From positions 434,001-498,000 of the forward strand of contig JAIQDT010001094.1 of NCBI GenBank assembly GCA_021521415.1: DNA of 64,000 bases. The letters are read 5' to 3'. Below the pieces are notes generated by a model. It saw only the letters and a program-made list of their open reading frames with translations, was not told the DNA's origin and made no database searches. The DNA comes from Bidens hawaiensis (taxonomy: Eukaryota; Streptophyta; Magnoliopsida; Asterales; Asteraceae). The position numbers and the translations under genes were made by a program. This document shows positions 1-49,970 of the stretch, piece by piece; position 1 is the first letter of the stretch, and each line of letters starts with the position of its first letter.

Positions 1-3000
1 TTATACCGCTGCTACAAGCCAGGTTTGTTGTGCTCTTTATATTATATAAATAGTCTTGTAGTTTCTGCTTTTGTGGAATGAAGATTCTGCAAGTTTTTAT
101 GTACTAGGATCCAACTACTTCAAAATAAGACTGAGGAAGTGATATCATGTTTGTCTTCTACGGTATCATGCAATTTGTTTGGTTTGCAGTCTGATTATTT
201 ACGGAAGATATCCTTGAAGATGCTGACTATGGAGACCAGATCACAAAATCCGATGTCAGACGCCATGCAGGCAAACTCTACCGGTAATAGTGTAAACCCA
301 TCAGATCCAGGTATTTCATGATTCACTATCATTCAATGTTTGTCATTTGTTTTACAAATATAACTTTTAGGAATAAGTTTATTCCAATTCTTCTAGTAAA
401 TTATATGATGTTACTCCAATGAATAGGTTCTCAGGTGATGCAACAAGTGAACAACCAAGGGCAACAACTTCCCATTTCTGTGCCATCCAATAATATCCAA
501 CAAGGACAACAAATGATGTCTCAAAGCATGCACAATAACATTGGTTCAAATGGAATGCAAGGCTCTTCTAGTTTATCATCTGGATTGCCACCTGGCAGTG
601 GCTTACAACAACCCCCCATCACAAATGTTGCTGGCCAAAATACAAACTTGCAGAACATTCAGAACATGTCTAATGCTCAACAAAATACTGTAGGAAATAC
701 AATGGGGAACAGTAATTTTGCAAATCAAAGGCAAATTCCAGGACGACAACAACTTGTTCCGCAACAGCAACCGCAGCAACAACCACAAGCTCAAAATTCA
801 CATTATCTTTATCAACAGCAGTTGCAACAAATGGCAAAACAGAAACTGCAACCACCCCCGATGCAACCACACATTCAGCAGCCACAGCAACCGCAACAGA
901 ATATGTTACAGCAAGGTCATCTGCAACCGTCTCAACAATCTGTTATGCAACCCACAATGATGCAAACATCTTCTCTCTCTACAGTTGTACAAAATCAGCA
1001 GCCTGCAGTACCACAGTCGTCACAACCGTTAATGAACCATCAACAATCGGTTCTAAGACAACCAAGACAGCAACAAGGACAACCAATTCAGCAGCAAGTA
1101 CAACCAACACAACAGAATCAAATGGGGCAACAGACAAATGCTACAAACATGCAGCAAAACCAGCTTATGGGACAACAGAATAACTACTCTGATATGCAGC
1201 AACAACAGCAGAGGCTGATAGGCCAGCAAAATAAGCTTTCAAGTCTGCAGCAGCCACAACAGCAGTTAATTGGTCAACACAACAATCTTTCTGGCATGCA
1301 ACAACAATCATCTGGTCAACAGCAACAATTGCTTGGAAATCAATCTGGTAACACCAGCATGCAGACCAATCAGCATTCCGTGCAACAAATGTTACAATCT
1401 AATAAGATGCCAATTCAGCAACAGAATCAGCAAAGTTCAGCCAATATGTTGCCAACACAAGTTCAACAATCACAACCACAGTTACAGCAGCAGGTGATGC
1501 CACACATGCAATCACAGCCTGGCCAGTTGCAGCAGCAACAGGTGGGTATGCAACAGCCAAATATGCTGCAAAGGGATATACAACAAAGGCTTCCAACAGC
1601 AGGTGGGTTCCAGCAGCAAAATGTGATTGATCAGCAGAAACAGCTATTTCAGCAACAGAGAGCTATGCCAGAGGCCTCATCAAGTAGAGTTTTTATTTTT
1701 TTATTTTTTTATCTATTACTTTAATATTGAACAATATTTTCAAGGAGCTAATGCTTGAAATTTCTGCTGTATTGTAGCATCATTAGATTCAACAGCTCAA
1801 ACTGGCAATCCAAATGGTGGAGATTGGCAAGAGGAAGTGTATCAAAAGGTGCATTAAGTTTGTTTTTCTTCACATTATTATAAAAAATATAATTTATTTG
1901 AGTAAAAATATCGTTGCTGATAAAATATCAATTGTGTGTACACACGGGTTTTTGCTAGTAATCGTTCCTGCGTTTACATATTTTGTTTAATACTAGGTTT
2001 TCAAATTAATACTATTTCATTTGAATAGCGATGTCACTATTATGACCTGGAGTTTTTTTTATCCTGGTTACAGATAAAAGCTATGAAGGACTTGTATCTA
2101 CCTGATTTGAGTGACATGCACCATAAAATTCTTTCCAAGTTACAGCAGGTAAGTTGGTGTCTCATATTAAAGTTAGGAATCTTTTCAGTGTAAAAACATG
2201 TAGAACAATTTATAAGATAATATGTAATCTTGCAAAAGCGTACAGCTAAAAACAATCATTTATTTCTCGATTTAATAAAAACCTTTTGTTTTCCAGCACG
2301 ATTCTCTTCCTCAGCAACCAAAAAATGAGCAACTAGAGAAGCTGAAAGTATTCAAAAATATGTTGGAGCGGTTTATGCAATTCTTACAAATTCCTAAGCA
2401 TGGAATATTAGCTAATTATAAAGACAAGCTGGGTACTTATGAAAAGCAGATTATCAATGTCATCAATTCAAATAGGCGGAAACCAGCGCCACCTCAGCAG
2501 CAAGCACAAGCACTTCCTCCACCACATATGCAATCTATGCAGCAATCACAACAAACACATTCTCAATTGACACAAGTTCAACCACATGAAAATCAGATGA
2601 ATTTACAGGGTTCCATGGCACCAATGCAACCAAATAATATGGGAAATATGCAGCAAAATCCCTCCGTTTCTCTCTCAGGGGTTTCAAATGGGCAACAAAA
2701 CATGATGAGTTCCATACAACCTGGTTCTAATCTTGACCCGGGTCAGAATAACAATATGAACTCCTTACAACAGGTGTCTAGTGGCTCTCTACAACAAAAT
2801 GCAGTGAGTGGGGCCCAACAAGTAAACATAAACCCATTGTCACTTCAGGGAAACTCCAATATGCTCCAACATCAGCATATTAAACAGCAGGAACAACTGC
2901 TTCAAAACCAGCAACTGAAGCAATTACAACAACGACAGTTGCAGCAACAGTTTCTTAAACAGCAATTTTTGCAACAGCAGCAGCAACAACAGCAATTTCA

Positions 3001-4843
3001 CCAACAAACAAAGCAGCAGCTTACTGGAAATCAGTTATCTCAGCTTCCTCAGATAAGTGACGGTGGCGATGTTAAACTTAGACAGCAGATGAATGTGAAA
3101 CCAGGTGGTTTTCAGCATGCCGCCGCCGCCCAGCGGTCGGCTTACCACCAACAACTAAAGTCAGGTGCTCCATTTTCACCTCAGCTCCTTTCGGCTGCTT
3201 CTCCACAAATGTCACAGCATGCATCTCCTCAGATTGACCAGTCAAACATGTTCAAATCTGCCAACTCACCATTTGCGGTACCTTCTCCTTCAACTTCCTC
3301 TGCATCTCCTTTACCAGGGGATTTTGAGAGAATAAATGGTGTTTCTTCACTATCCAATGTTGGAAACATTGGACATCAACAACAACCGTCTTCTTCGGTC
3401 TTACCTAATCAAATTGGTACACCTGGAATATCTGCATCTCCTTTACTTGAGTTCACTAGTTCAGATGTAAACAATGGTCTTGTGCCATCAATAGGACCCG
3501 GAAAGTCCACTGTTACAGAACAACCTCTAGAACGCTTACTCAAAGCGGTCAGTTTTTAAACTACACTTTTTATATATAAAATAATAAGGTAAAACTGTAA
3601 GTCTCAACATCTTGTAACTGCTTATCTTTATAGGTAAAGTCGATTTCGCCTACAGCTTTGAATGCCTCAGTTAGTGACATTGGGTCAGTTGTGAGTATGA
3701 TTGATAGGATTGCTGGGTCAGCACCAGGTAACGGTTCAAGAGCTGCAGTTGGGGAGGATTTGGTTGCCATGACAAAATGTCGTCTTCAGGCGAGAAATTT
3801 TGTTACTCAAGATGGAACAAATGGCATCAGGAAGATGAAACGGTTTACAAGTGCAATGCCATTAAATGTTGTTTCATCTGCTGGCAGTGTAAATGATAGT
3901 TTTAAGCAGTTGAATGTTGAGACTTCAGAACTGGATTCAACTGCATCCTCTGCTGTCAAAAGGCCTCGAACTGAGGTACTATCCTTGCAACAACTTTGAG
4001 CTTGGTGGTCATATGCACATCAAGGCTTTATTTCTCAATGCTAGAGATGATTTTTTTTTGTGGTACAGACTAATCATGCCCTTTTGGAAGAGATAAGAGA
4101 TATAAACCGGGGACTCATTGATACTGTGGTAGCTGTTAGTGAGGAAGATGTTGATCCAGCTGCAGCCACTGCGGCTTCAGAGGGCGGTGATGGCACCGTG
4201 GTTAAATGCTCCTTTAGTGCTGTAGCTCTCGGTCCAAACTTGAAGTCACAATATGCTTCAGCACAAATGGTATGTAAAATATATGTTATGTTAATATTCT
4301 ATGTTAGATTGTATACTGTATTTCTTTCCATGTTTCATGCATACTAACATTTATTCTCAATCAATGTATAGTCACCTATCCAACCGCTAAGGCTGCTTGT
4401 TCCTGCAAATTATCCAAATTGCTCCCCGATGCTGTTGGATAAGTTCCCTGCTGAAGTCAGGTGATAACCAACTTCAGTTATTATTTGATGCAAATCTTAA
4501 TTTTATCTTTTTAAAGCATTTCGTGGCCTTTAACATCATTTATGATGTTAGTTTTGTCACACAAGATCTTTGTGGGACGAGTCAAAAGTGAGGGATATAA
4601 TTGTCTTTTGACATGCTTGATTTGACTTTTCTTTGCAGCAAGGAGTTCGAGGATCTTTCAACAAAAACCAAATCAAGATTCAGTATTTCTTTGAGAAGTC
4701 TTTCACAACCAATGTCACTTAAAGAAATTGCGAGAACTTGGGATGTGTGTGCACGTGGTGTCATCTCCGAGTATGCTCAGCAAAGCGGTGGTGGTACCTT
4801 CAGCTCTAAATACGGTACCTGGGAGAACTGTTTAGCTGCTTGA
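1..4843 (+). CDS. MED15A: Mediator subunit 15a, canonical copy (5' end outside window)
   Basis: Mediator tail subunit; MED15 binds activation domains through an N-terminal KIX and relays the signal to RNA polymerase II. The exons I read are 1-22, 190-310, 427-1683, 1778-1848, 2074-2148, 2297-3547, 3634-3975, 4069-4269, 4372-4460 and 4639-4843. All join in frame with GT-AG borders, giving 1210 codons plus a stop at 4841-4843. The window opens at the end of KIX exon 2 (YTAATSQ); the next exon supplies the last KIX helix ([19 protein letters not shown]). A long Gln-rich exon follows, then the [10 protein letters not shown] exon, the [12 protein letters not shown] exon, and a second large exon (HDSLPQQ, then [20 protein letters not shown], then Gln-rich). 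After that come the conserved plant MED15 C-terminal blocks ([69 protein letters not shown]). Nothing in it is broken. It is the likely donor of all the partial copies downstream. The first KIX exons and the start codon lie upstream. Confidence 0.93.
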
Positions 4844-6600
4844 TCTTGTTATCTTCCTTGGAACCCTAGCAACAAGTATAGTTGTTTATCATGCTCTTAT
4901 TTAAACTACATATCATGCATATTCAGCAAAAACGTATTCAAATTATCATGTTGTATGATAAAACCATAATATATGCTTGTAACTTTAATCCAGTTTCCAT
5001 TTTTTTTTTCCGGGTATATAATTACTTGGGGGATGTATAAGCATTTTGCATCTAGAGTGTTTGGCTTGTCATGAATATGAAATGTTTGTTATAACCTTTT
5101 GGGAAAGCTTTTCTCATTAAGGAAATTTTGCTTTATATCTGTCAGTCTATCACTAACATAGTTTGTAATTCACTTGGCAATTTAAGGACTGATATTCGTA
5201 ATTGTTGTGTTTATGTTGGAACGAGAAAACCAAACCGAGTAACAGTTGATTTACTATGAAATTTACAAAACAATGCAATTACGGATTATGCACAATGCAA
5301 ATGTTTTGTCCAAACTTGACCCAACTCTAATACACAATCAAATTTTTTACTTCATCTCCAAAATAATGTCACGTAAGTGATGCTATGCGTGCACCACCTC
5401 ACATATCATATGATTCGTATGAGGTCATACGAGCTTTGTAAGTTCTGCAAATGTTGTACGACTTGTATAACATTTTCATTAAATCCGAATTGACAATATA
5501 AGAACATGTTAATTGTATAACTAGCAAACACTATTATAACCAAGAAAACTAACTCAAAAACTTAGTTACATTGGTAAACCATAACTCGGTTTAAATAGGC
5601 TAATCTAGACTCAGTATGCTACAATACCAATAGCTATGATATAGGATTTAACCAACTTTTTATAGGCCAACTCAAACACTGCCAACTTTTTGCTAAGTGA
5701 ACGGGAAATTACCAACATTTCACATATCATGATGCCAACATAAGGGTGGACAGAGCGGGTGAAAGATGGAGCTGCATTGATCGGTACCGACAGGAACACC
5801 ACCCGTGAGTAGTGGTACCAAAGAAAATTTAACCCTTCTTGGGTTTAGAAGCTGAACATCCCGCTTCCTTTAACGGTAATATGGTTATTATGGTCATTAC
5901 AACGGTAATTTTTTTTAATAATTATGAAATTTCAACACTATAAATAACCAAACCTACTTCAAAAATTTTACACACCAACTTTATTCCGTTCTCTCCTACA
6001 TCACTCCGATAGATCTTTAAAATTCCATCATCTAGCTTGTGCTCATCTAGTGGTGAGAGTTCATTGTCCAATGGTACAAAGATCGACACCACACAATTTC
6101 TTGCTGTAGTTGCAAAAAAAGGTGTCAAATCGAGAGTTTTGAAACACACCAAAACCAAGAGTTACGGTAAAGAGAGATCACGAAGCCGCACATAAACCTC
6201 TAATGATAGATTACTTTGTTATAGTTCCAAAATTTAACGCCAAGAAGGTTCCGTTGTCGAGGGAACTACTTTAACGAACTGTTGCCGACATTGAGACAAA
6301 CTTTGTGTATTTCCAACAATGTTATGATGCTAGATTGAGAAAAAAAGTTTTCACTAATAAAACAATACACATCCGTAATACGTAAACTAGCCTATGAAGC
6401 CGTTAGTAACACTTACGATGAAGTAGTCTTGTATCAACTCGTATAAAATCTTATTTTGTTTTTGTGGGTTGTAAATTTTAGTTGACCTTTAACATTATAT
6501 AAATCAAAATGTTTCATTGGTCGTGTCTTTCAAAAGTCATTACTTTATTATGGCGGTGGTAATTACAATAATAATATAATATGTGCGTTACGCTTCTGCC
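4844..6600. other. MED15a 3' UTR and spacer
   Basis: The first 250 bases or so are the 3' flank of MED15a; a diverged version recurs behind several truncated copies. The rest is AT-rich spacer with only short unsupported reading frames, for example a 78-codon minus-strand frame at 5922-6158. I recognise no gene or complete transposon here. Confidence 0.5.
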
Positions 6601-6695
6601 GCTTCATACCACTCCAGTCAATCACAATCGACAAATCAAATTGCGGTTTCGACGACGACTACAAAACCCTAGGTCCGATAGATAATTGGACACCG
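6601..6695 (+). promoter_or_regulatory. Probable 5' leader exon of unit 2
   Basis: A GC-richer stretch ends at a good donor (CACCG/GTATGTATCG). A similar leader with the donor CACTG/GTATGTAATG stands ahead of unit 6, the closest relative of unit 2. The leader intron would run to 7793, where TTTTAG precedes 40 bases of leader and the ATG at 7834. The transcription start is not identifiable from sequence. Confidence 0.45.
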
Positions 6696-7833
6696 GTATG
6701 TATCGTATACAGTTTAATTCACTTTATTCATCATCAAATTGCTGCTGCTTTTAGATCATTAGCATACTATATGGCCTATTCCTCGTTGACCAATTTTATT
6801 CTGCAATCCTACTTGAGTTTTATAACTACGCAGTCGTAATTTTTGTGTTAAGGTATCGTAAAAGAGCTAATTTAGTGTCTGATTTTGATATGATCAACTT
6901 CTATTGTGACGTCATCTTCCACAAATACAAATTATGAAGTCATAATTATTACATGATGATTTTGATTGAATGATAATCATTAAAAGAATTATGTCATAAC
7001 TAAATGATGATTCTCAGGGCAGAGGATTTAAATACCTCTCTGACTCGAAATAAAAAGGTCCGTAGGCCCTAACGAAAGCTTTGGGCCCAATAAGTATGAG
7101 ATGATCAAGGTACTGGTCCAGTTGTATTTTATAAGGTTTATATTTTTAAATATATAAATTTTGGCCCCTTAAAATTACTGGCTGAATGTCCGGCTCGCAC
7201 TGAGTGGATGAAATGGCTATTTTGGTTATAGAGAAGACTTAGTTGGGTAGGCAAAATAGCAGTGTAGGTTATACTGCGTGTACGAGCCTGTTCTTTCACT
7301 TTAACATTTTGCAAACTAACAAGTTAAGCTTATAATCTGTTTTGCACGAAACGTTAATATCATTTAATATTTAAATTTCGGTTTGTACTAACTAATATAT
7401 CGAATATTAACTTGTTAAATAATCGCACTGAAATGATTCTAATTTAATTTCGCATGCCTATAAGTTATTTCAAATAATTTATTTAAATAATAATAATAGT
7501 TAATATTGTTATCGCGTAACTAAATATTAACGTGTTGTATAATCGTTTTAAAGTGCGAGTTTACTTGACTCAGCTGGTGGAGATAAGAGAAAAAATTCCA
7601 TCAAATCATAATTACTTGGACAGCGTGAATAAGAATTATTTTTGTCTTGCTATATGCATAAGATATCCAAGTGTTTAAAATTGCTATCTTTTTGTTGGTG
7701 TTGGAGTCCTTTGAATGCTTGAAAGTTGAACTGAAAATGATTAAAGTAGCTTCTAATTTTATTAGTTAGTGTCTTGTGATAATTTCATTTTAGACTGTTG
7801 CAATAGGATTGAAAATAAATCGTCGTACAGAAG

Positions 7834-10800
7834 ATGGATACGTGCAATTGGAGGCCTGCTCAGGGTACAAGTAATGCCATGGAATTTGGTGATTGTAGGG
7901 CTCAACTGCAACGGAAAAGGACTGTGAATAAGATGTATGACTTATATTATTCTTTTTGCAAAATGAGGTTTTTTTTTTCTGAAGTTTCTGCTAAATGTTT
8001 GGATTGTTTTGACTGACAAATGCCAACGTTGTGCAGACTGGATACCTTGAAGAAGCATCTTCCGTTCACAGAATATGAGAGAGTACAGGAACTTAGGAAA
8101 ACAGCTGAGAGGGTTGAAAAGGAGATTTATACTGCTGCCACAAGCCAGGTTTGTGTGCATTTATATTATATTAATAGTTTGTATTTTGTATTTTTCATTA
8201 TTTATTTATTTTTTTGTGGAATGAAGATTTTGCAAGTCTTCAGGACAAGGATGTGATATCATATTTGTTGTACATGGTAAGGTATTGTGGGATCTAAAAT
8301 TGATTTGGTTTGCAGTCTGAATATACACGGAAGATATGCTTCATGATGCTGGCTATGGAGACCAGATTACAAAATCCCATATGGTCTAACTCTGCTAATA
8401 GTTCAGTACCATTAGAAAATGGTGGACATTGGCAAGAGGAAGTGTATCAAAAGGTGCTGCATATTATTATCTTGCATTCCTTCTAAATGAACTATGAGTG
8501 GGAATATTAATCTCGTTCCAGTTACAGGCTTCATGACCTTGATTTTTTTCTTCTGATTACAGATAAAAGATATGAAGGATCTGTATCTACTAGAAGCTGG
8601 TGATTGGAGGGCTCAACTGCAAGCAAATTCACGGGAAAATATAAGAAACAAGATGTATGGTTATTTATTTATTTGTCTAGTCTCTTAACCGCTCTTAATA
8701 CTTGGTTATGCTCACCTGCTTGTGTGGTTGGTTCTCCACACTTTTAATTTAAAATGAAGTCTTTCTTCTGACATGATTTTGACCGACATGTGTTGACCTT
8801 GGGTAGAATGGGTACCTTGAAGAGTCATCTTCCATTCTCTGGAGATGAGGGGCTACGGCAGCTTAGGAAAATGGCTGTGAGGTTTGAAGAGAAGATTTAT
8901 ACTGCTGCTACAAGCCAGGTTTGCTGTCTTCTCTGTATTATATTAATATTTTTATAATTTTTGGCAATTTTGCTTTTGTTGAATGAGGAGAGTCTGCTAG
9001 TCTAGTAGTCTTTATGTACAGATGATCCAGGCACTTCAAAATAAGAGAAGGAAGTGATATCATGTTTGTTGTTTACCAGTGTAGTGTATTGTGTGGCCAA
9101 AAATCATGTAGTGTATTTGGATTGCAGTCTGATTATTTACGGAAGATATCACTGAAGCTACTGACCATGGAGAATAGATCACAAGATCCCATGCAGTCAA
9201 ACTCGCCTGCTAATAGTGTAAACCCTTCATATCCAGGTATTTCATAATACACTATCATTCAATATTATGCGTGCTGTTATGTTTTCTGTAGGAATAAGTG
9301 TATATCTGCAAGGAGAAACAAGATGATGGAATATGTCTATTTATATTGTATATATTTTGATAGAGGGGACACCAAACCGAACTGAAAGCCAACGAAACCG
9401 AACCGTAATTAACCGATAACCGAATTAACCGAAAAGCGATTATCGGTTATTTTTATATCCTCGGTTAACCGAAATTAACCGAACCACTCACATTTTCATA
9501 TATTTCTAGCGTGTATACCTCCATTTCATGTATTTCGTGTTTTATACCTCCATTTCATGTATTTATACCACGATTTCATGTATATATATCTCTGTTTCAT
9601 GTATTTATTTATACATGCATTTCATGTATTTATGCATCCGTTTCATTTTTTTCCAAGTAAATATTTTATTTTAGTTATTAACCAAAATTAACCTAACCGA
9701 ACGGAAACTGAAAAATTAACCAAGTAAACTGAATCGATTAACCGAAAACCAATTGGTTAATTTGATTGAGGCTATTAACAGAACCGAATCGTGCACACCC
9801 CAAGGGGACATGTATATATCGAGGGGGGACTTCCTCCAAACTAAACTATAAGACCCAATGTGATGCATAGTGTGCTAATACATAATCTAATACACACACA
9901 CATATGCATTGATAATGACAAGCTTGTTACAGATACACATGTTTAACAATTTCCAATGCTTTTTTTTAGTAAATAATTTTTTTTTTACCATTGGATAGGT
10001 GGTTCTCAGGTGATGCAGCAAGTGAACAACCAAGGGCAACAACTTCCTATTTCCGTGCCATCTAATAATATTCAACAAGTAATGTCACAGAGCATGCACA
10101 ATAACATTGGTTCAACTGGAATGCAGGGCTCTTCTAGTTTATTGTTTGCATTGCCATCTGGCAGCAGCTTACACCAACCCACCATGGCAAGTGGTGCTGG
10201 TCCAAGTTCAAGCTTGCAGAACATTCCAAACATGTCTAGTGTTCAACAGAACCAGCTCATTGGTGACACCAGCATGGAATTGGATGATTGGAGAGATCAC
10301 CTGCAATCAGATTCACGAGAAAGGATAAAATACAAGATGTATGTGTTTATATTATTCTTTCTCTCATGTTATAAATATTTGATTATGCTCACCTGGTTGA
10401 GTGTCAAGTGTTTGGTCTTACTGATTCTCTTACACTCGTTTTTTTTTTTTACAAAATGATGCTTTCCACCTATAATTTCTGCCAACTATTTGCGTTATTT
10501 TGTGTAGATTGGATACCTTGAAGAGGCATCTTCCATACTCTGGAGACGAGGGGCTACAGGAGCTTAGGAAAATAGCTGAGAGGTTTGAAGAGAAGATTTA
10601 TGCTGCTGCTACAAGCCAGGTTTGTTGTGTTCTTTATGACTTTTTATTATACTTCAATAGTTTTGTAGTTTTTTCTTCTGTGGGTTGAAGATTTGGCAAG
10701 TCTTTATGTAAAATGATCAAAATACTTGAAAATAAGAAAGGAAAGTGATATCATGTTTGTCGTATACGGTTATGTATTGTGCGATCTAAAATCATGTCAT

Positions 10801-10923
10801 TTATTTTCTTTGCAGTCTGATTATTTAAGGAAGATATCCTTGAAGATGCTGACTATGGAAACTAGACCGCAATATCCCAATCCCATGCTGTCAAACTCTG
10901 ATGGTAATAGCATAAACCCTTAG
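7834..10923 (+). CDS. Triple-KIX MED15-derived protein (unit 2)
   Basis: Nine exons join in one frame: 7834-7934, 8037-8148, 8316-8453, 8563-8654, 8807-8918, 9128-9236, 9999-10338, 10508-10619 and 10816-10923. They total 1224 nt and encode 407 aa. Three KIX modules are visible: KIX1 at residues about 20-95, KIX2 about 130-206 and KIX3 about 318-395. KIX1 ends in SEYTRKICFMMLAMETRLQ, followed by a short WQEEVYQK segment. KIX2 starts inside a hybrid exon (IKDMKDLYLLEAGDWRAQLQ). A Gln/Ser-rich linker, a shortened version of the MED15a Q exon, joins KIX2 to KIX3. In KIX1 the conserved GDW is GDC (Cys21). The frame ends at TAG 10921; compared with the copies at 301 and 37221, one base is missing just before it. 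The MED15 C-terminus is absent, so the protein should bind activation domains but lack normal Mediator docking (inference). A hAT-like element sits in the intron before the linker exon. Expression is unproven. Confidence 0.72.
9371..9801. mobile_element. hAT-like MITE in an intron of unit 2
   Basis: A 431-bp insertion flanked by near-identical 8-mers (GAGGGGAC at 9363 and AAGGGGAC at 9802). The body is built of AACCGAACC-type motifs in inverted arrangement around a core of short CATTTCATGTATTTATAC-like repeats. The right end reads GTGCACACCCCA. A reverse-oriented relative with the same core lies at 55683-55987. It has no coding capacity. Confidence 0.6.
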
Positions 10924-11460
10924 ATCCAGGTATTTCATATTAGACTATCATTCAATATTGCGCCGTTAATTTTTTATAAATATGATTTTTGCAGGCGTAA
11001 GTTTATAAAAAAGTACAGTGAGTGGGCTCTTAACAACTGCAACTTGATATTCTATAATATTTTGGGAAAGCTGCTTAATGTTGTTACCTTTGAAGCTATG
11101 CACTTATGCTACCGTGACAAGAAGTATAGATGTTATCTTCCCTGATTGTACATTTGCATATTTGAACGTAAATTTATGAATCAATTATCTGCACTTCCAT
11201 GTTCTACGATATCTTGTGCAGTTACATAATGAAAATTACAATCTTTATGTCGTGTAGATCTGTTTGCATTATATATAGTGACATCTAATTGCCATATTGA
11301 AGGTTGATTAAAGGCGAGGCTCATTTATGAAAGGTCACTCGGGTTGTATGTCAAATTGTTGATTGCTTTTTATGTGTACAACATGTAAGTTGTGTTATGT
11401 CTAAGCGGTAAATTGCCGTACAATGTTGAGATTGTTGATTGTGGGAACTATTTTCATTCA
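10924..11460 (+). pseudogene. Truncated MED15 3' end behind unit 2
   Basis: After the stop, a patch like MED15a around 2800 (ACAGTGAGTGGG) runs straight into a version of the MED15a 3' flank. The sequence between, covering most of the second large exon and all C-terminal exons, is missing. The same junction and the same further downstream flank (TGTTGAGATTGTTGA at about 11421) recur behind unit 3 at 15130-15600. This shows that these units copied an already deleted template. Confidence 0.6.
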
Positions 11461-13922: not shown

Positions 13923-15074
13923 ATGAGATTTGGTGATTGGAGGGCTCAACTGCAACGGGAAAGGATCGTGAACAAGATGTATCAACTATCAACTTATATT
14001 ATTCTTCATCATAAATATTTGCATTATTATGCGTCGTCCTTGTGTAGAATGGATATCTTGAAGATGCATCTTCCTTTCTCTAGATATGAGAGGTTACAAG
14101 AACTACAAAAAATAGCCGAGCGGGTTGAAAAGGAGATTTATACTGCTGCCACAAGTCAGGTTAATTTGCCAAGTTCTTTATATTATACACAATAGTTTTG
14201 TAGTTTTTGCCCGTACGATATTGCCTTTACTGGACCTAAAGTATGTAGTTTTTTTTTGTTCGCAGTTTGAATATTCACGGAAGATATGCTTGAATATGCT
14301 GACCATTGAGACCAGATTACAAAATCCCATCCCGCACACCCTGCTGTCAAATAGCAGAGGTTGGCAAGAGGAAGTGTAGCAAAAGGTGTTGTACATTATT
14401 ATTATTATTATCTTAATTCTTGCATTTCTTGTAAATCACTGAATAGCTTTTGAGTTGCATAGCATTGACATTATGACTGAAAATGATAAGCAACTAATCT
14501 GTTTCTAATTACAGGCTCTATGACTGCGATTCTTTTTCTTCTGGTTACAGATAAAAACTGTGAAGTACCTATACCAACTAGATTTGAGGCATCCAGTGTG
14601 TGCAACTGGCTCTGTTGGTGAATCTGGTGATTGGAGGGCTCATCTGCGAGCAGGTTCGCGCCAAAGGGTCGCGAACAAGAGGTATGTCTTTATCTTATCC
14701 TTTTTTATTTCTTATTTTTTAATTCAGAAAATGATGTTTTCCTGTCTGCTAAATATTTGCATTATTTTGACGTCCATGTGTAGAACAAAACACTTGGAGA
14801 GGTGTCTTCCATTCTCTGGACACGCGGAGCTGCAGGCTATGGCAGTGTGTTTTGAAGACAAGATTTATAATGTTGCAGCAAGCAAAGTTTATTCTGTTCT
14901 TTATATTATTATGTCATTAGTTTTGTAGTTTTTATTATGTACAGTGGGGCCTAAATCATGTAATTTATTTTGTTTGCAGGATGAATATTTAAGGAAGATA
15001 TCCTTGAAGATGATAACAATGGAAAATATATATATACCCAAGCAGTCAAACTCTTCTGAAACTCTCGGATCCAG
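13923..15074 (+). pseudogene. Double-KIX MED15 copy (unit 3), disrupted
   Basis: The exons match the KIX modules: 13923-13978, 14048-14159, 14266-14385, 14551-14681, 14784-14886 and 14980-15074. The usual start position (ATG at 13910) now reaches TGA after five codons. The next in-frame ATG is 13923, just before RFGDWRAQLQ. KIX1 is otherwise complete (FEYSRKICLNMLTIETRLQNP). TAT has become TAG at 14377, in the VYQK motif. Exon four is a hybrid in which IKTVKYLYQLD runs directly into a full KIX start (SVGESGDWRAHL). KIX2 lacks three residues of its second helix and ends [18 protein letters not shown]. The frame at the last border differs from its paralogues. It could at most encode a single-KIX peptide. 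The preceding intron end is shared with units 2 and 6. Confidence 0.75.
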
Positions 15075-44839: not shown

Positions 44840-47800
44840 TCATACCTCCGGTGATTTCTGACGGTTTGTCGGGTTTCGCGGTTTTCTGTGTTTGGTCAGC
44901 CCTTCAAAAAGGTGATGATACTTCTTCATCATTTGATCCTCGCGTTCCCACGTGAACTCCGGTCCATGTCTCGAGTTCCAACGAACTTTAACGATTGGAA
45001 TTTTGCTGTGCTTGAGTGTTTTGGTTTCCCAATCCAAAACTTCGACTGGTTCTTCAATGAAGCGTAGCTGTTCATCAACTTGCAATTCCTCCAAAGGAAC
45101 TACTTGGGTTTCATCGGACAGGCATTTCTTCAAATTGGACACGTGGAATACATTGTGTACGTCACTGAGTTCCGTTGGTAGGTCCAGTCGGTACGCCACC
45201 GGACCAATGCGCTCAGTTATTCGGTAGGGACCAACATATCGTGGGTTAAGTTTGTTTCGCTTACCAAAGCGAACCACATCTTTCCAATGTGAGACTTTGA
45301 GTAACACTCGATCGTTCACTTGAAATTCGAGAGGTTTTCGGCGCTTGTCGGCGTAACTCTTTTGGCGATCTCGTGTTGCTGCCATGCGATTTCGGATTTG
45401 AACAATCTTTTCCAAAGTTTCGAGTACCAGTTCTGGACCAGTGATTTGGCTGTCACCCACCTCTGCCCAGCAGAGTGGTGATCGACACTTCCGTCCGTAC
45501 AGCGCTTCAAACGGCGCTGCTTTAATACTTGGGTGGTAGCTGTTATTATACGAAAACTCTACCAAAGGTAAGTGAGGTTCCCAACTTTTTCCGAAATCCA
45601 ACACGCATGCACGCAACATATCCTCCAGAGTCTGAATAGTTCGTTCACTTTGCCCGTCCGTCTGAGGATGGTATGCTGTGCTCATATCAAGACGGGTGCC
45701 TAGTGCGCTTTGCAGCGACTTCCAAAAGTGCGAAGTGAAACGAGAATCTCGATCAGAAATGATTGAGACAGGCACTCCGTGTCTAGACACTACTTCCTTC
45801 ATGTAAACGCGAGTCAGTCTTTCCATTTTGTCCGATTCCTTAATCGCTAAGAAGTGTGCAGACTTAGTCAACCGGTCAACGATCACCCAGATGGTATCGC
45901 ATCCCGTCGGTGTATTAGGTAAACCCGTGATAAAATCCAGTGAGATGTGTTCCCATTTCCACATTGGGAGTTCCGGTTGTTGCAGTAGACCAGATGGTTT
46001 CTGGTATTCTATTTTGACTCTGGCACAAGTCAAGCATTTGCTCACGTAGGTGGCAATGTCGGCTTTCATGTTCGGCCACCAGTAAAGTGCCTTTAAATCA
46101 TGATACATTTTATCTGAACCAGGGTGGATAGAATATCGGGACTTGTGAGCTTCGTCCATCACTAGAGTTCTCAACTCTCCGTATCGTGGAACCCAAATCC
46201 GGTTCTCAAAATATCGGACCCCGTCCGATCTGGTTTCAAGTTGCTTGTTCATGCCCCGCATGAGTTCCGATGGAAGATTGTCATCTTTCAAAGCTTCAAG
46301 TTGCGCCTCGCGAATCTGGTTGGGTAAGTTTGCATGAATCGTGAGTTGCAATGCTCGCACTCGTCTCGGTTTATCTGTTTCTTTCCTGCTGAGGGCGTCG
46401 GCCACTACATTGGCCTTGCCAGGGTGGTACTTGATGGCACAATCATAATTCTTGAGCAGCTCGACCCAACGACGCTGTCGCATGTTCAGCTCCTTCTGAT
46501 CGTAGATATGTTGGAGACTCTTGTGGTCGGTGTAAATGGTGAACTTGGTACCGTACAAGTAATGCCTCCATATCTTAAGGGCAAACACCACAGCTCCGAG
46601 TTCCAAATCATGGGTCGTGTAGTTCTTCTCGTGAATCCGTAGTTGTCGAGAGGCATAGGCTATAACCTTCTCGAGTTGCATCAGCACACAACCGAGACCT
46701 TGTATCGATGCGTCACAGTGTACCTCAAAATTTTCCGTTCCCTCGGGGAGGGCTAGAATAGGGGCGCTACAGAGTTTGGTTTTCAACAGTTGAAAAGCGG
46801 ATTCTTGCGCGTCACCCCAATTGTACTTAGTGCCTTTGTGAGTCAAAGCGGTGAGGGGTTGAGCAATCTTTGAAAATCCCTCGATGAAACGTCGGTAGTA
46901 GCCGGCCAGTCCTAGGAATTGCCGCACCTCAGTCGGAGTCTTAGGTGCTTCCCAGTTTTTGATGGCCTCTACCTTACCGGGATCGACATGGATACCATTC
47001 TCGTTGATCACATGCCCTAAAAAGTGAACCTCGCGAAGCCAAAACTCACATTTCGAGAGTTTAGCATACAGTTGTTCCCTCTTCAATAATTCCAGAATTA
47101 CCCTTAAGTGTTCTTCATGGTCAGCTTCGTTCTTGGAGTAGACAAGAATATCATCAATGAAAACAATCACAAACTTGTCGAGGTACGCCTTGCATACTCG
47201 ATTCATGAGATCCATAAATACGGCTGGTGCGTTGGTTAGGCCAAAAGGCATAACCGAAAACTCGTAGTGACCATACCGTGTTCTGAAAGCCGTCTTTGAG
47301 ATATCTTCTTCGCGTACTCTTAGTTGGTGATAACCAGATCGCAGATCGATCTTCGAGTAGTAACTCGATCCTTGAAGCTGGTCAAACAAATCATCAATTC
47401 GGGGTTAAGGATAACGGTTCTTGACCGTCACCTTGTTCAAATCACGGTAGTCGATGCACATGCGGAAAGTCCCGTCCTTCTTTCGGACAAACAAGACAGG
47501 GGCTCCCCATGGCGATGAGCTAGGTCGGATAAAACCCTTATCCAACAAATCTTGCAACTGAGTGGACAGTTCCTGAAGCTCCGCTGGTGCGAGCCGATAC
47601 GAGGCTCGTGCTATGGGTGCTGCACCGGGTGTCAACTCGATTTGGAATTCGACTTGACGAATATGAGGGAGTCCAGGCAAATCCTTCGGGAAGACTTCCG
47701 GAAAATCTCGCACAATTGGTATATCTTCAATTCGCTTCTCCTCCGCGGGTTTCTCAACAATATGCGCCAAAATTGCCGGATGACCCTTTCGTAGATACTT

Positions 47801-49051
47801 CTGCGCCTTCATGAGGGTAATGACGCTGGTGGTCATGCCGCTTCTCTCACCCCGGATCGAAATGATCTCGCCGGAAGGGGTAGTAATGTGAACTATTTTG
47901 TCATGACATATAATCTCCGCTCGGTTCTCGGATAACCAGTCCATGCCGACCACGACATCGAAACTACTAAGCGTAAAAGGAATAAGGTCGATATCAAAAA
48001 TATGACCTGACAGTTTTAACTTACATCCCGCAAGTACATGAGTCGTTACTATAGTCTTACCGTCAGCTAATTCAACAGGAAACTTAGCATCTAACGGAGT
48101 TGGAGTTAAGTCTAAGAGTTGGCTAAAGGCTTTCGACACAAAACTCCTATCAGCTCCAGTGTCAAACAAAACAGAAGCAAAACAATCGTTCACAGGGAAC
48201 TTACCAGTCACCACGTACGGATCATTGCGGGCTTGACCCGACCCAATTACAAAAGCTCTTCCCTTGCCATTGCTTCCACCACTACTGCCACTTCCATTAC
48301 CTCCGTTGTTGTCGTTCTGTTTCAGCTTGGGACAATCTTTCCTGAAATGACTTTCCTGCCCACATTCGAAACATCCCTTCGTCGTCATAGGTGGTTTAGG
48401 AGCACCCTTTGCCGCAAGGTCTCCTTTACATTCCTTCGCCTGGTGACCCATCTTTCCGCATCTCTGACACTTGACACGGTCACATGGGCCAACATGATGA
48501 TAGTTGCACCTATTGCACTTCGGATATTTCCCAGCAGCATATCCGCTCGAACCCTGCCCGCTACCGTTGTTATTGTTGTTGTGACTTTGATTGTTAAAGC
48601 TCCGAGTGAATTCGGGCTTACGGTAGTGTTGTTGCTATGGGAGGTTCGAGGATGAGGATCTAGTGTTGTCAAACTTTCTCTTTCCGCTGCTCGGGTTGCT
48701 GTTGTTGTTGTTGTCATTACTCGGGTTGTCACGGGCTTTAGCGGTTGAACCCCTAGGTGGTAATGCACCTTGGGTCACAGCCTGATCCGTCAGTTTGTGA
48801 GCTAAACGGATCGCTTGTTGAATCGTGGCTGGTCTGGAAGACGTCACCATGCCCTGAATCTGCGGTGCTAACCCATCGATATACATCTCAATCCTCTTAC
48901 TCGGCGGATCCACCATCCGCGGACACATCACAGCCAACTCATGAGAACGGGCAGTGTAGGCTTCAATTTCTGAGCCCACCATCTTCAGTGACCAAAATTC
49001 TGACTCTAACTTTGAAATCTCTTCTCTCGGACAGTACTCTTCTCGCATCAT
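44840..49051 (-). pseudogene. gypsy gag C-terminus and pol polyprotein, interrupted by two stops
   Basis: One continuous minus-strand frame apart from TAG at 48635-48637 (after SSSNLP) and TAA at 47405-47407 (inside RT, after VKNRYP). In order it has a gag tail (REEYCPREEISKLESEFW), three CCHC-type knuckles (including [14 protein letters not shown] and [14 protein letters not shown]), protease [10 protein letters not shown] near 48160, and RT with [10 protein letters not shown] (residues 76-85 of the last open segment). RNase H follows (HCDAS about residue 225, TDHK), then the integrase HHCC finger (H422, H430, C452, C455) and the DD35E core (D485, D546, E582). The end is a chromodomain-like tail ([10 protein letters not shown]) and stop at 44840. 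All catalytic motifs are present, so only the stops and the gag damage inactivate it. Confidence 0.92.
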
Positions 49052-49071
49052 ATTCTTGAACTCCTCTCAGT

Positions 49072-49812
49072 TCATAGCGTTAGCCAGTTCCAATCCAAGA
49101 ATTTGCACATTTGCACATCGTCTGGGGACACCTCTGAGTGTGCCTCTTCCTCAGCCGGTTCTTCCTCCGGTTCCTCTTCGGGTTCCTCCTCGGGATCTTC
49201 CTCGGGATCCTCCTCAGGCTCTGCCTCAGGTTCCGCTGCGTTCTGAGCAATTTGCATTTGTAAGACATCGCAACGCTCTAAAGTTATCTCTGTTCGGGTC
49301 CTTGCTACTTGGAGTTGCTCTTGCAAGTCTATCATCTCGGCTTGCATCTTTCTCATAATTTTCATCTGTTGATCACTAGCCTCTTGCATTTCCTTCATTG
49401 CCGCTGCCATGCGGGCAATTTCCTCCTTAGTCTCGGTTCCGTCTTTTAACAGTCCGGAAACGTTGGCTCTCGTATAGCGCATGTAACCCACATCACGCTC
49501 CAAACATGAAACAACAGCTGCGAGAACTCGCTCTACAGGTTCGGTTATGGGTGGTAGGGTGTTGGGATAAGCAGGGTGGTTCGGGTGAGGTAACGGGGGA
49601 ACTTGTTCGCGATATACCATACGTCTGATCATGTTAGGGTACCAATCCCAGCTAACGTCGTTTTCGTATATGCCTCCGGATAAGCGGTACCTCTTCGGTG
49701 CGGGAGCTTCGAGTTCCGGGACTACACGGGGTGGCGATGCGGTAGGTAACTGCGGTTCCTTCCCGTGAGCATGAGTCATCGGATCAGATGAGGATGAGGG
49801 TGGCGTCGACAT
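49072..49812 (-). pseudogene. gypsy gag N-terminus, truncated
   Basis: The frame starts MSTPPSSSSDPMTHAHGKEP at 49812. It has a coiled-coil-like stretch (about residues 130-190) and a Glu/Pro repeat (EEDPEEDPEEEPEEEP), and ends KFLDWNWLTL. In relatives a Retrotrans_gag core of roughly 100 residues follows. Here it is gone, and the next gag sequence (MMREEYCPREE at 49051) is in another frame after a TGA. I infer an internal deletion; the element cannot form normal capsid from its own gag. Confidence 0.85.
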
Positions 49813-49970
49813 TCCTACAGGTAAGCCGTGTATGCGCGCGCGTATGAGTGAAAGAGGTAAAGAGATAAGATAACAAAGACTACACTAATCTATGCAGTGC
49901 GCATCATTATTACTAATGGGTCGTCGCGGTTATAGTCTAGTATGCATGCAGCTTCTAGTTCGCTATAACC

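What the first reader, a model, noticed from the sequence alone, without database searches (positions are those of the whole stretch)
7834..10923. Intact three-KIX protein made from MED15 pieces
Nine exons join without any stop into 407 aa carrying three successive KIX modules, two of them fused through hybrid exons. MED15 and CBP/p300 normally carry one KIX, and I know of no described protein of this form. Multiple KIX domains could bind activation domains with avidity while lacking the Mediator-docking C-terminus, giving a possible competitor, scaffold or decoy (inference).
Basis: partly seen in the sequence, partly recalled or inferred. Interest (0 to 1): 0.88.

Follow-up and report, generated by a model that had tools for sequence, protein, structure and literature searches.

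The report
Three-KIX gene beside MED15 in Bidens
Next to the normal MED15 gene of a Hawaiian daisy relative lies a rearranged copy that encodes three activator-binding KIX modules without the rest of MED15; its reading frame is open in three related chromosome copies, but similar multi-KIX proteins are already known from many plants.

Summary
Window 7834-10923 contains nine exons with GT-AG introns that join into 407 codons with three Pfam KIX_2 domains. Three exons are hybrids of MED15 exons. The window is Bidens hawaiensis, a hexaploid of the Heliantheae alliance. Two syntenic copies keep every exon, splice site, start and stop, with one in-frame 3-bp indel. At the intron rate 9-20 frame-breaking indels per pair would be expected in the exons; none is seen. 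So it is most likely a coding gene, but a fast one: dN/dS 0.53-0.78 against 0.15-0.20 for MED15a.

The novelty claim fails. Of the 120 hits listed, 60 carry three or more KIX modules, 56 under a strict cut; a 2017 paper reports up to six in a Brassica protein. KIX1 belongs to a KIX lineage seen in several tribes of the Heliantheae alliance.

No transcript of the full form was seen. Two database models divide the locus: exons 1-5 joined to exons 47 kb away, and a separate 122-aa one-KIX protein. The decoy idea is plausible and untested. Verdict: a new member of a known kind.

The parts
7834..7934 (+). exon 1: start codon and first part of KIX1
   Evidence: matches MED15a exon 1, 80/89 aligned bases
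8037..8148 (+). exon 2: KIX1 middle
   Evidence: 91/110 to MED15a exon 2
8316..8453 (+). exon 3, hybrid: end of KIX1 fused to the WQEEVYQK exon of MED15
   Evidence: 5' part 56/65 to MED15a 190-254, 3' part 36/37 to MED15a 1812-1848
8563..8654 (+). exon 4, hybrid: IKDMKDLYL exon fused to the first KIX exon; start of KIX2
   Evidence: 5' part 25/28 to MED15a 2074-2101, 3' part 32/35 to MED15a exon 1
8807..8918 (+). exon 5: KIX2 middle
   Evidence: 103/112 to MED15a exon 2
9128..9236 (+). exon 6: end of KIX2
   Evidence: 94/109 to MED15a exon 3
9372..9801 (.). insert of about 430 bp in intron 6, absent from both other copies, similar pieces elsewhere in the genome
9999..10338 (+). exon 7, hybrid: start of the Q-rich exon fused to the first KIX exon; start of KIX3
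   Evidence: 5' part 218/251 to MED15a 426-685, 3' part 48/52 to MED15a exon 1
10508..10619 (+). exon 8: KIX3 middle
   Evidence: 103/110 to MED15a exon 2
10816..10923 (+). exon 9: end of KIX3 and stop codon (same stop in all three copies)
   Evidence: 89/104 to MED15a exon 3
10995..11008 (+). alternative last exon used by the 122-aa database model (donor after 10903); open and in frame in all three copies
   Evidence: the other copies read from the alignment
7771..7833 (+). leader just before the start codon, with an acceptor-like site ending at 7793; alignable to the MED15a leader
1..4843 (+). neighbouring MED15a gene (begins before the window); closest source of the modules on this contig
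   Evidence: end taken from reading the sequence

Best explanation
A tandem duplicate of MED15a was rearranged by exon-internal fusions into a short gene that encodes three KIX modules joined by a helix (WQEEVYQKIKDMKDLYLL) and a Q/S-rich linker, ending before the rest of MED15. Shown: the open frame, its conservation in three syntenic copies, the MED15 likeness of each exon, and predicted KIX folds. Inferred: the protein is made, binds activation domains of transcription factors through its KIX modules and, having no Mediator-docking part, lowers or redirects their access to MED15/Mediator. KIX1 is of a distinct KIX type found in the Heliantheae alliance with changed residues in helices 2 and 3, so it may have other partners than KIX2 and KIX3. 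It belongs to the known class of plant multi-KIX MED15-like proteins.
Against: dN/dS of 0.53-0.78 is three to four times that of MED15a, and the bootstrap interval includes 1 for two of three pairs; single modules give values from 0.13 to 2.44 on few changes, so no module is shown to be constrained on its own. No transcript or protein for the full form was found; database models split the locus. None of the three protein searches listed a full-length product of this locus or of its two copies. No binding or localisation data exist here; the competitor step is inference.
Confidence: 0.55

Rival explanations
1. The locus is transcribed as separate messages: a one-KIX protein from exons 7-9 (122 aa, alternative end) and a two-KIX or truncated product from exons 1-6, so the three-KIX protein is rarely or never made.
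For: P0121, named 'subunit 15a-like isoform X2 [Bidens hawaiensis]' on a contig of the window contig's length, starts at 10184 and splices 10903 to 10995; P0003 uses exons 1-5 exactly and leaves out exons 6-9. Isoform numbering usually reflects read support (recalled, not checked). The alternative end is in frame in all three copies.
Against: Exon 6 donor, exon 7 acceptor and the frame across them are kept in all three copies. P0003 jumps from 8918 to 56244, across a retrotransposon, and looks like an automatic chimera.
Confidence: 0.3
2. Recent debris of a MED15 tandem array: a rearranged copy that happens to be still open and has no selected product.
For: It sits among partial MED15 pieces; dN/dS is high, with intervals reaching 1 in two of three pairs; exons differ almost as much as introns (7.5% against 8.8% for window versus C9800).
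Against: 0 frame-breaking indels in exons of three copies against 18, 21 and 10 in introns; no stops; all splice sites kept in all three copies.
Confidence: 0.13
3. A positive co-activator or scaffold: three KIX modules hold several activators together or bridge them to other factors, rather than competing with Mediator.
For: Several binding modules and a Q/S-rich linker; multi-KIX proteins recur in many plants.
Against: No further interaction domain was found in the 407 aa besides KIX-type matches (a NikA-like match stayed under its cut-off).
Confidence: 0.2

Closest known systems
Plant multi-KIX MED15-like proteins (e.g. Malus P0006, 408 aa; Deinandra P0001, 703 aa; Helianthus P0014, 336 aa)
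   Same: several KIX_2 modules in a protein without a MED15 body: Pfam counts 4, 6 and 3
   Different: module number, linkers and exon fusions differ; the order KIX1 - helix - KIX2 - Q/S linker - KIX3 of Bidens was not seen whole in the 37 proteins whose sequences I printed
Mikania MED15-like proteins P0033 and P0035
   Same: a KIX of the same type as KIX1, the WQEEVYQK helix, a linker with GMQGSSSLSFA like that of Bidens, then an ordinary KIX
   Different: two KIX modules; the middle one is missing
Another Bidens hawaiensis protein, P0258 (LOC143614552, 409 aa)
   Same: three KIX_2 stretches by Pfam
   Different: from a contig of another length (171,162), diverged modules, different linkers
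MED15a
   Same: closest source of the modules on the contig; one solved MED15a KIX chain, 9zjn_C, matches KIX3 at 1.5e-28
   Different: one KIX, long Q-rich body and C-terminal part, slower protein evolution
Tandem-KIX proteins in KIXBASE (PMC5668377)
   Different: no gene structure or selection data seen

Membership tests
plant multi-KIX MED15-like proteins | two or more KIX_2 domains in one chain | tested here: met
   three stretches in the translated frame
plant multi-KIX MED15-like proteins | KIX modules nearest to MED15 KIX, not CBP or RECQL5 | tested here: met
   the exon pieces align to the neighbouring MED15a at 83-97% of aligned bases; the PDB sequence hit of KIX3 is MED15a, CBP only at E 0.39
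plant multi-KIX MED15-like proteins | expressed as one protein | not testable with these tools
   no Bidens transcript data at hand; database models split the locus
MED15 (Mediator subunit) | N-terminal KIX | tested here: met
MED15 (Mediator subunit) | long Q-rich body and C-terminal Mediator-association part | tested here: not met
   frame ends right after KIX3 in all three copies; no such Pfam match
CBP/p300-like HAC proteins | acetyltransferase and TAZ domains beside KIX | tested here: not met
   only KIX-type matches over their cut-offs in the Pfam scan
RECQL5 | helicase domain beside KIX | tested here: not met
   only KIX-type matches over their cut-offs in the Pfam scan
Heliantheae-alliance KIX type (named KIX-A here) | KIX1 groups with the others in a tree | tested here: met
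   clade of 25 rows, 100/99, in a tree of 98 modules from 39 chosen proteins; few columns, bootstrap not settled

The most novel reading that the evidence does not exclude
A MED15-derived, Mediator-free multi-KIX protein family, marked by a specialised first KIX with a changed activator-binding face, has been kept across the Heliantheae alliance and in three homeologous copies in Bidens as a natural multivalent competitor of the Mediator tail.
Probability: 0.22. Interest if true: 0.6.

Novelty: new member of a known kind. Interest (0 to 1): 0.33.

Why it matters
If translated, it is one of a recurrent plant class of KIX-only proteins derived from MED15, and plants would have repeatedly evolved tunable competitors or adaptors for the contact between activators and Mediator. 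The three syntenic copies give a clean test of whether such proteins are under selection. The KIX1 type shared within the Heliantheae alliance is the part most worth study.

Tried and rejected
Rejected: 'no described protein of this form'. Rejected: a chance open frame. Not supported: capture of the MED15a promoter. Between window 5000-7833 and the 2.7 kb up to the MED15a start, only the leader itself (52 bp) and one 44-bp stretch at 6891-6934 matched, and a 24-bp match at a candidate first leader exon did not exceed the shuffles (score 26, maximum of 300 shuffles 27).

Limits of the tests: the three indel counts share branches and rest on one MAFFT alignment; exon 3 keeps its length but its linker part is aligned without gaps and with two 3-codon gaps in the protein-guided alignment. 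The stop simulation gave transitions half of all changes. MED15a dN/dS rests on four exons, 1010-1019 codons. Of the 60 multi-KIX hits at least P0046 is doubtful: its first module has 16.3 bits and Pfam counts two. The comparison of the two KIX types used 78 of 98 modules; 20 were dropped, namely outgroups and oddly placed rows. The label At for the solved MED15a chain is recalled.

Full report
What was checked. The window is G000:C1094:434001-498000 of a 3.47-Gb, 15,902-contig assembly. Database proteins from a contig of the same length (758,629) are named Bidens hawaiensis, and the published assembly of this hexaploid has 15,904 contigs and about 3.48 Gb (abstract and passages of PMC9113482), so the species is as good as settled. 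Bidens lies in Coreopsideae, Heliantheae alliance.

The gene. Nine exons between 7834 and 10923 join without a stop into 407 codons; all eight introns are GT-AG. Pfam KIX_2 matches three stretches. Aligning each exon to the neighbouring MED15a shows that six exons are plain copies of the three KIX exons and that three are hybrids: exons 3, 4 and 7. Thus KIX1 and KIX2 are joined through two hybrid exons that carry the WQEEVYQKIKDMKDLYLL helix of MED15, and KIX2 and KIX3 through one hybrid exon that carries the start of the Q-rich region. The frame stops right after KIX3.

Is it more than chance? Two other contigs carry MED15a followed by the same gene: C9800:23098-26033 and C246:1803444-1806365. 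Both keep every exon length but one (3 bp less in exon 9 of C9800), every splice site, the start and the stop. Introns of the three pairs differ by 18, 21 and 10 indels not divisible by three; at that rate 16.7, 20.1 and 9.3 would fall in the exons and none does. A neutral simulation gives 4.9 premature stops on average over the three copies and none in 0.64% of runs. dS between the window gene and the other copies is 0.084 and 0.108, close to 0.086 and 0.104 for MED15a of the same contigs, so the copies look like homeologs; dN/dS is 0.78 and 0.53 (0.60 for the third pair) against 0.20 and 0.15 for MED15a. The frame is therefore kept, but the protein is loosely constrained: the bootstrap interval includes 1 in two of three pairs, and single modules range from 0.13 to 2.44 on few changes. 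Substitutions in exons (7.5, 7.2 and 4.4%) are only a little rarer than in introns (8.8, 9.1 and 4.6%).

Novelty. Of the 120 listed hits (of 376) to the 407 aa, 60 have three or more KIX modules by my own profile (45 with 3, 12 with 4, 2 with 5, 1 with 6); 58 if each module must reach 30 bits and 56 at 50 bits. Over the 288 proteins listed by the three searches it is 70. Pfam finds 6, 4, 3, 3, 4, 5, 3 and 3 KIX_2 stretches in P0001, P0006, P0014, P0015, P0016, P0019, P0022 and P0028, and 3 in P0258, a Bidens hawaiensis protein from another contig. They come from Asteraceae, Rosaceae, Brassicaceae, Solanaceae, Amborella and others (organism names; families recalled). P0015, with three KIX modules, is an open frame of 335 aa on contigs of at most 1,569 bp; since the KIX exons here are about 100 bases each, such a contig is probably from RNA (inference). 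[quoted passage not shown] The Bidens gene is thus a new member of a known kind, made by its own set of exon fusions.

Expression. No Bidens transcript was available. P0003 (554 aa, LOC143543244) uses exons 1-5 exactly, then jumps to 56244, 57353 and 62511 in the window; its later parts could be placed only in short pieces. P0121 (122 aa, isoform X2) starts at 10184 in exon 7, uses exons 8 and 9 and ends through a donor after 10903 and an acceptor at 10995. That alternative end stays in frame in all three copies (alignment). These models neither show nor exclude the 407-aa product, but they make a one-KIX product from the 3' part a serious rival.

How it most likely works. MED15 KIX domains of plants bind activation domains, for example that of DELLA proteins, and so recruit Mediator (PMC11714745, passages). 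A protein with three such modules and no Mediator-association part would be expected to bind activators without recruiting Mediator, hence to compete. Shown: modules, predicted fold, missing C-terminus, conserved frame. Inferred: translation, binding, competition, avidity.

Scores. Interest is moderate to low.

Noticed in passing
G000:C246:1588000-1711000 (outside the window): KIX exons recur at 1596669, 1623759, 1650825, 1677900 and 1704988, that is five units of about 27 kb: a large tandem amplification of MED15-like pieces.
   Followed up: no
window 14049-14928: A further MED15-like gene with two KIX modules seems to follow; a database protein from a contig of the length of C246, P0068 (226 aa, LOC143626229 isoform X2), resembles it.
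   Followed up: partly
window 20500-63400: More MED15 pieces at about 20.5, 25, 36-38, 56-57 and 61.8-63.4 kb; much of the window is a MED15 duplication array.
   Followed up: partly
window 44840-49884, minus strand: Long open frames with reverse transcriptase, RNase H, integrase and zinc-knuckle-like sequence, read by eye as a Ty3/gypsy retrotransposon inside the array.
   Followed up: no
KIX1 of the gene (7834-8380) and modules of the same type in Heliantheae-alliance proteins: A separate KIX lineage with shared residue changes in helices 2-3, mostly the first KIX of its protein and often followed by a WQEEVYQK helix; not mentioned in the passages of papers that I saw.
   Followed up: partly
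window 9372-9801: Intron 6 insert of about 430 bp only in this copy, rich in AACCGAA-like words; similar pieces on many contigs.
   Followed up: no
P0258, Bidens hawaiensis LOC143614552 (contig of 171,162 bases): Another Bidens three-KIX protein of 409 aa with strongly diverged modules.
   Followed up: partly
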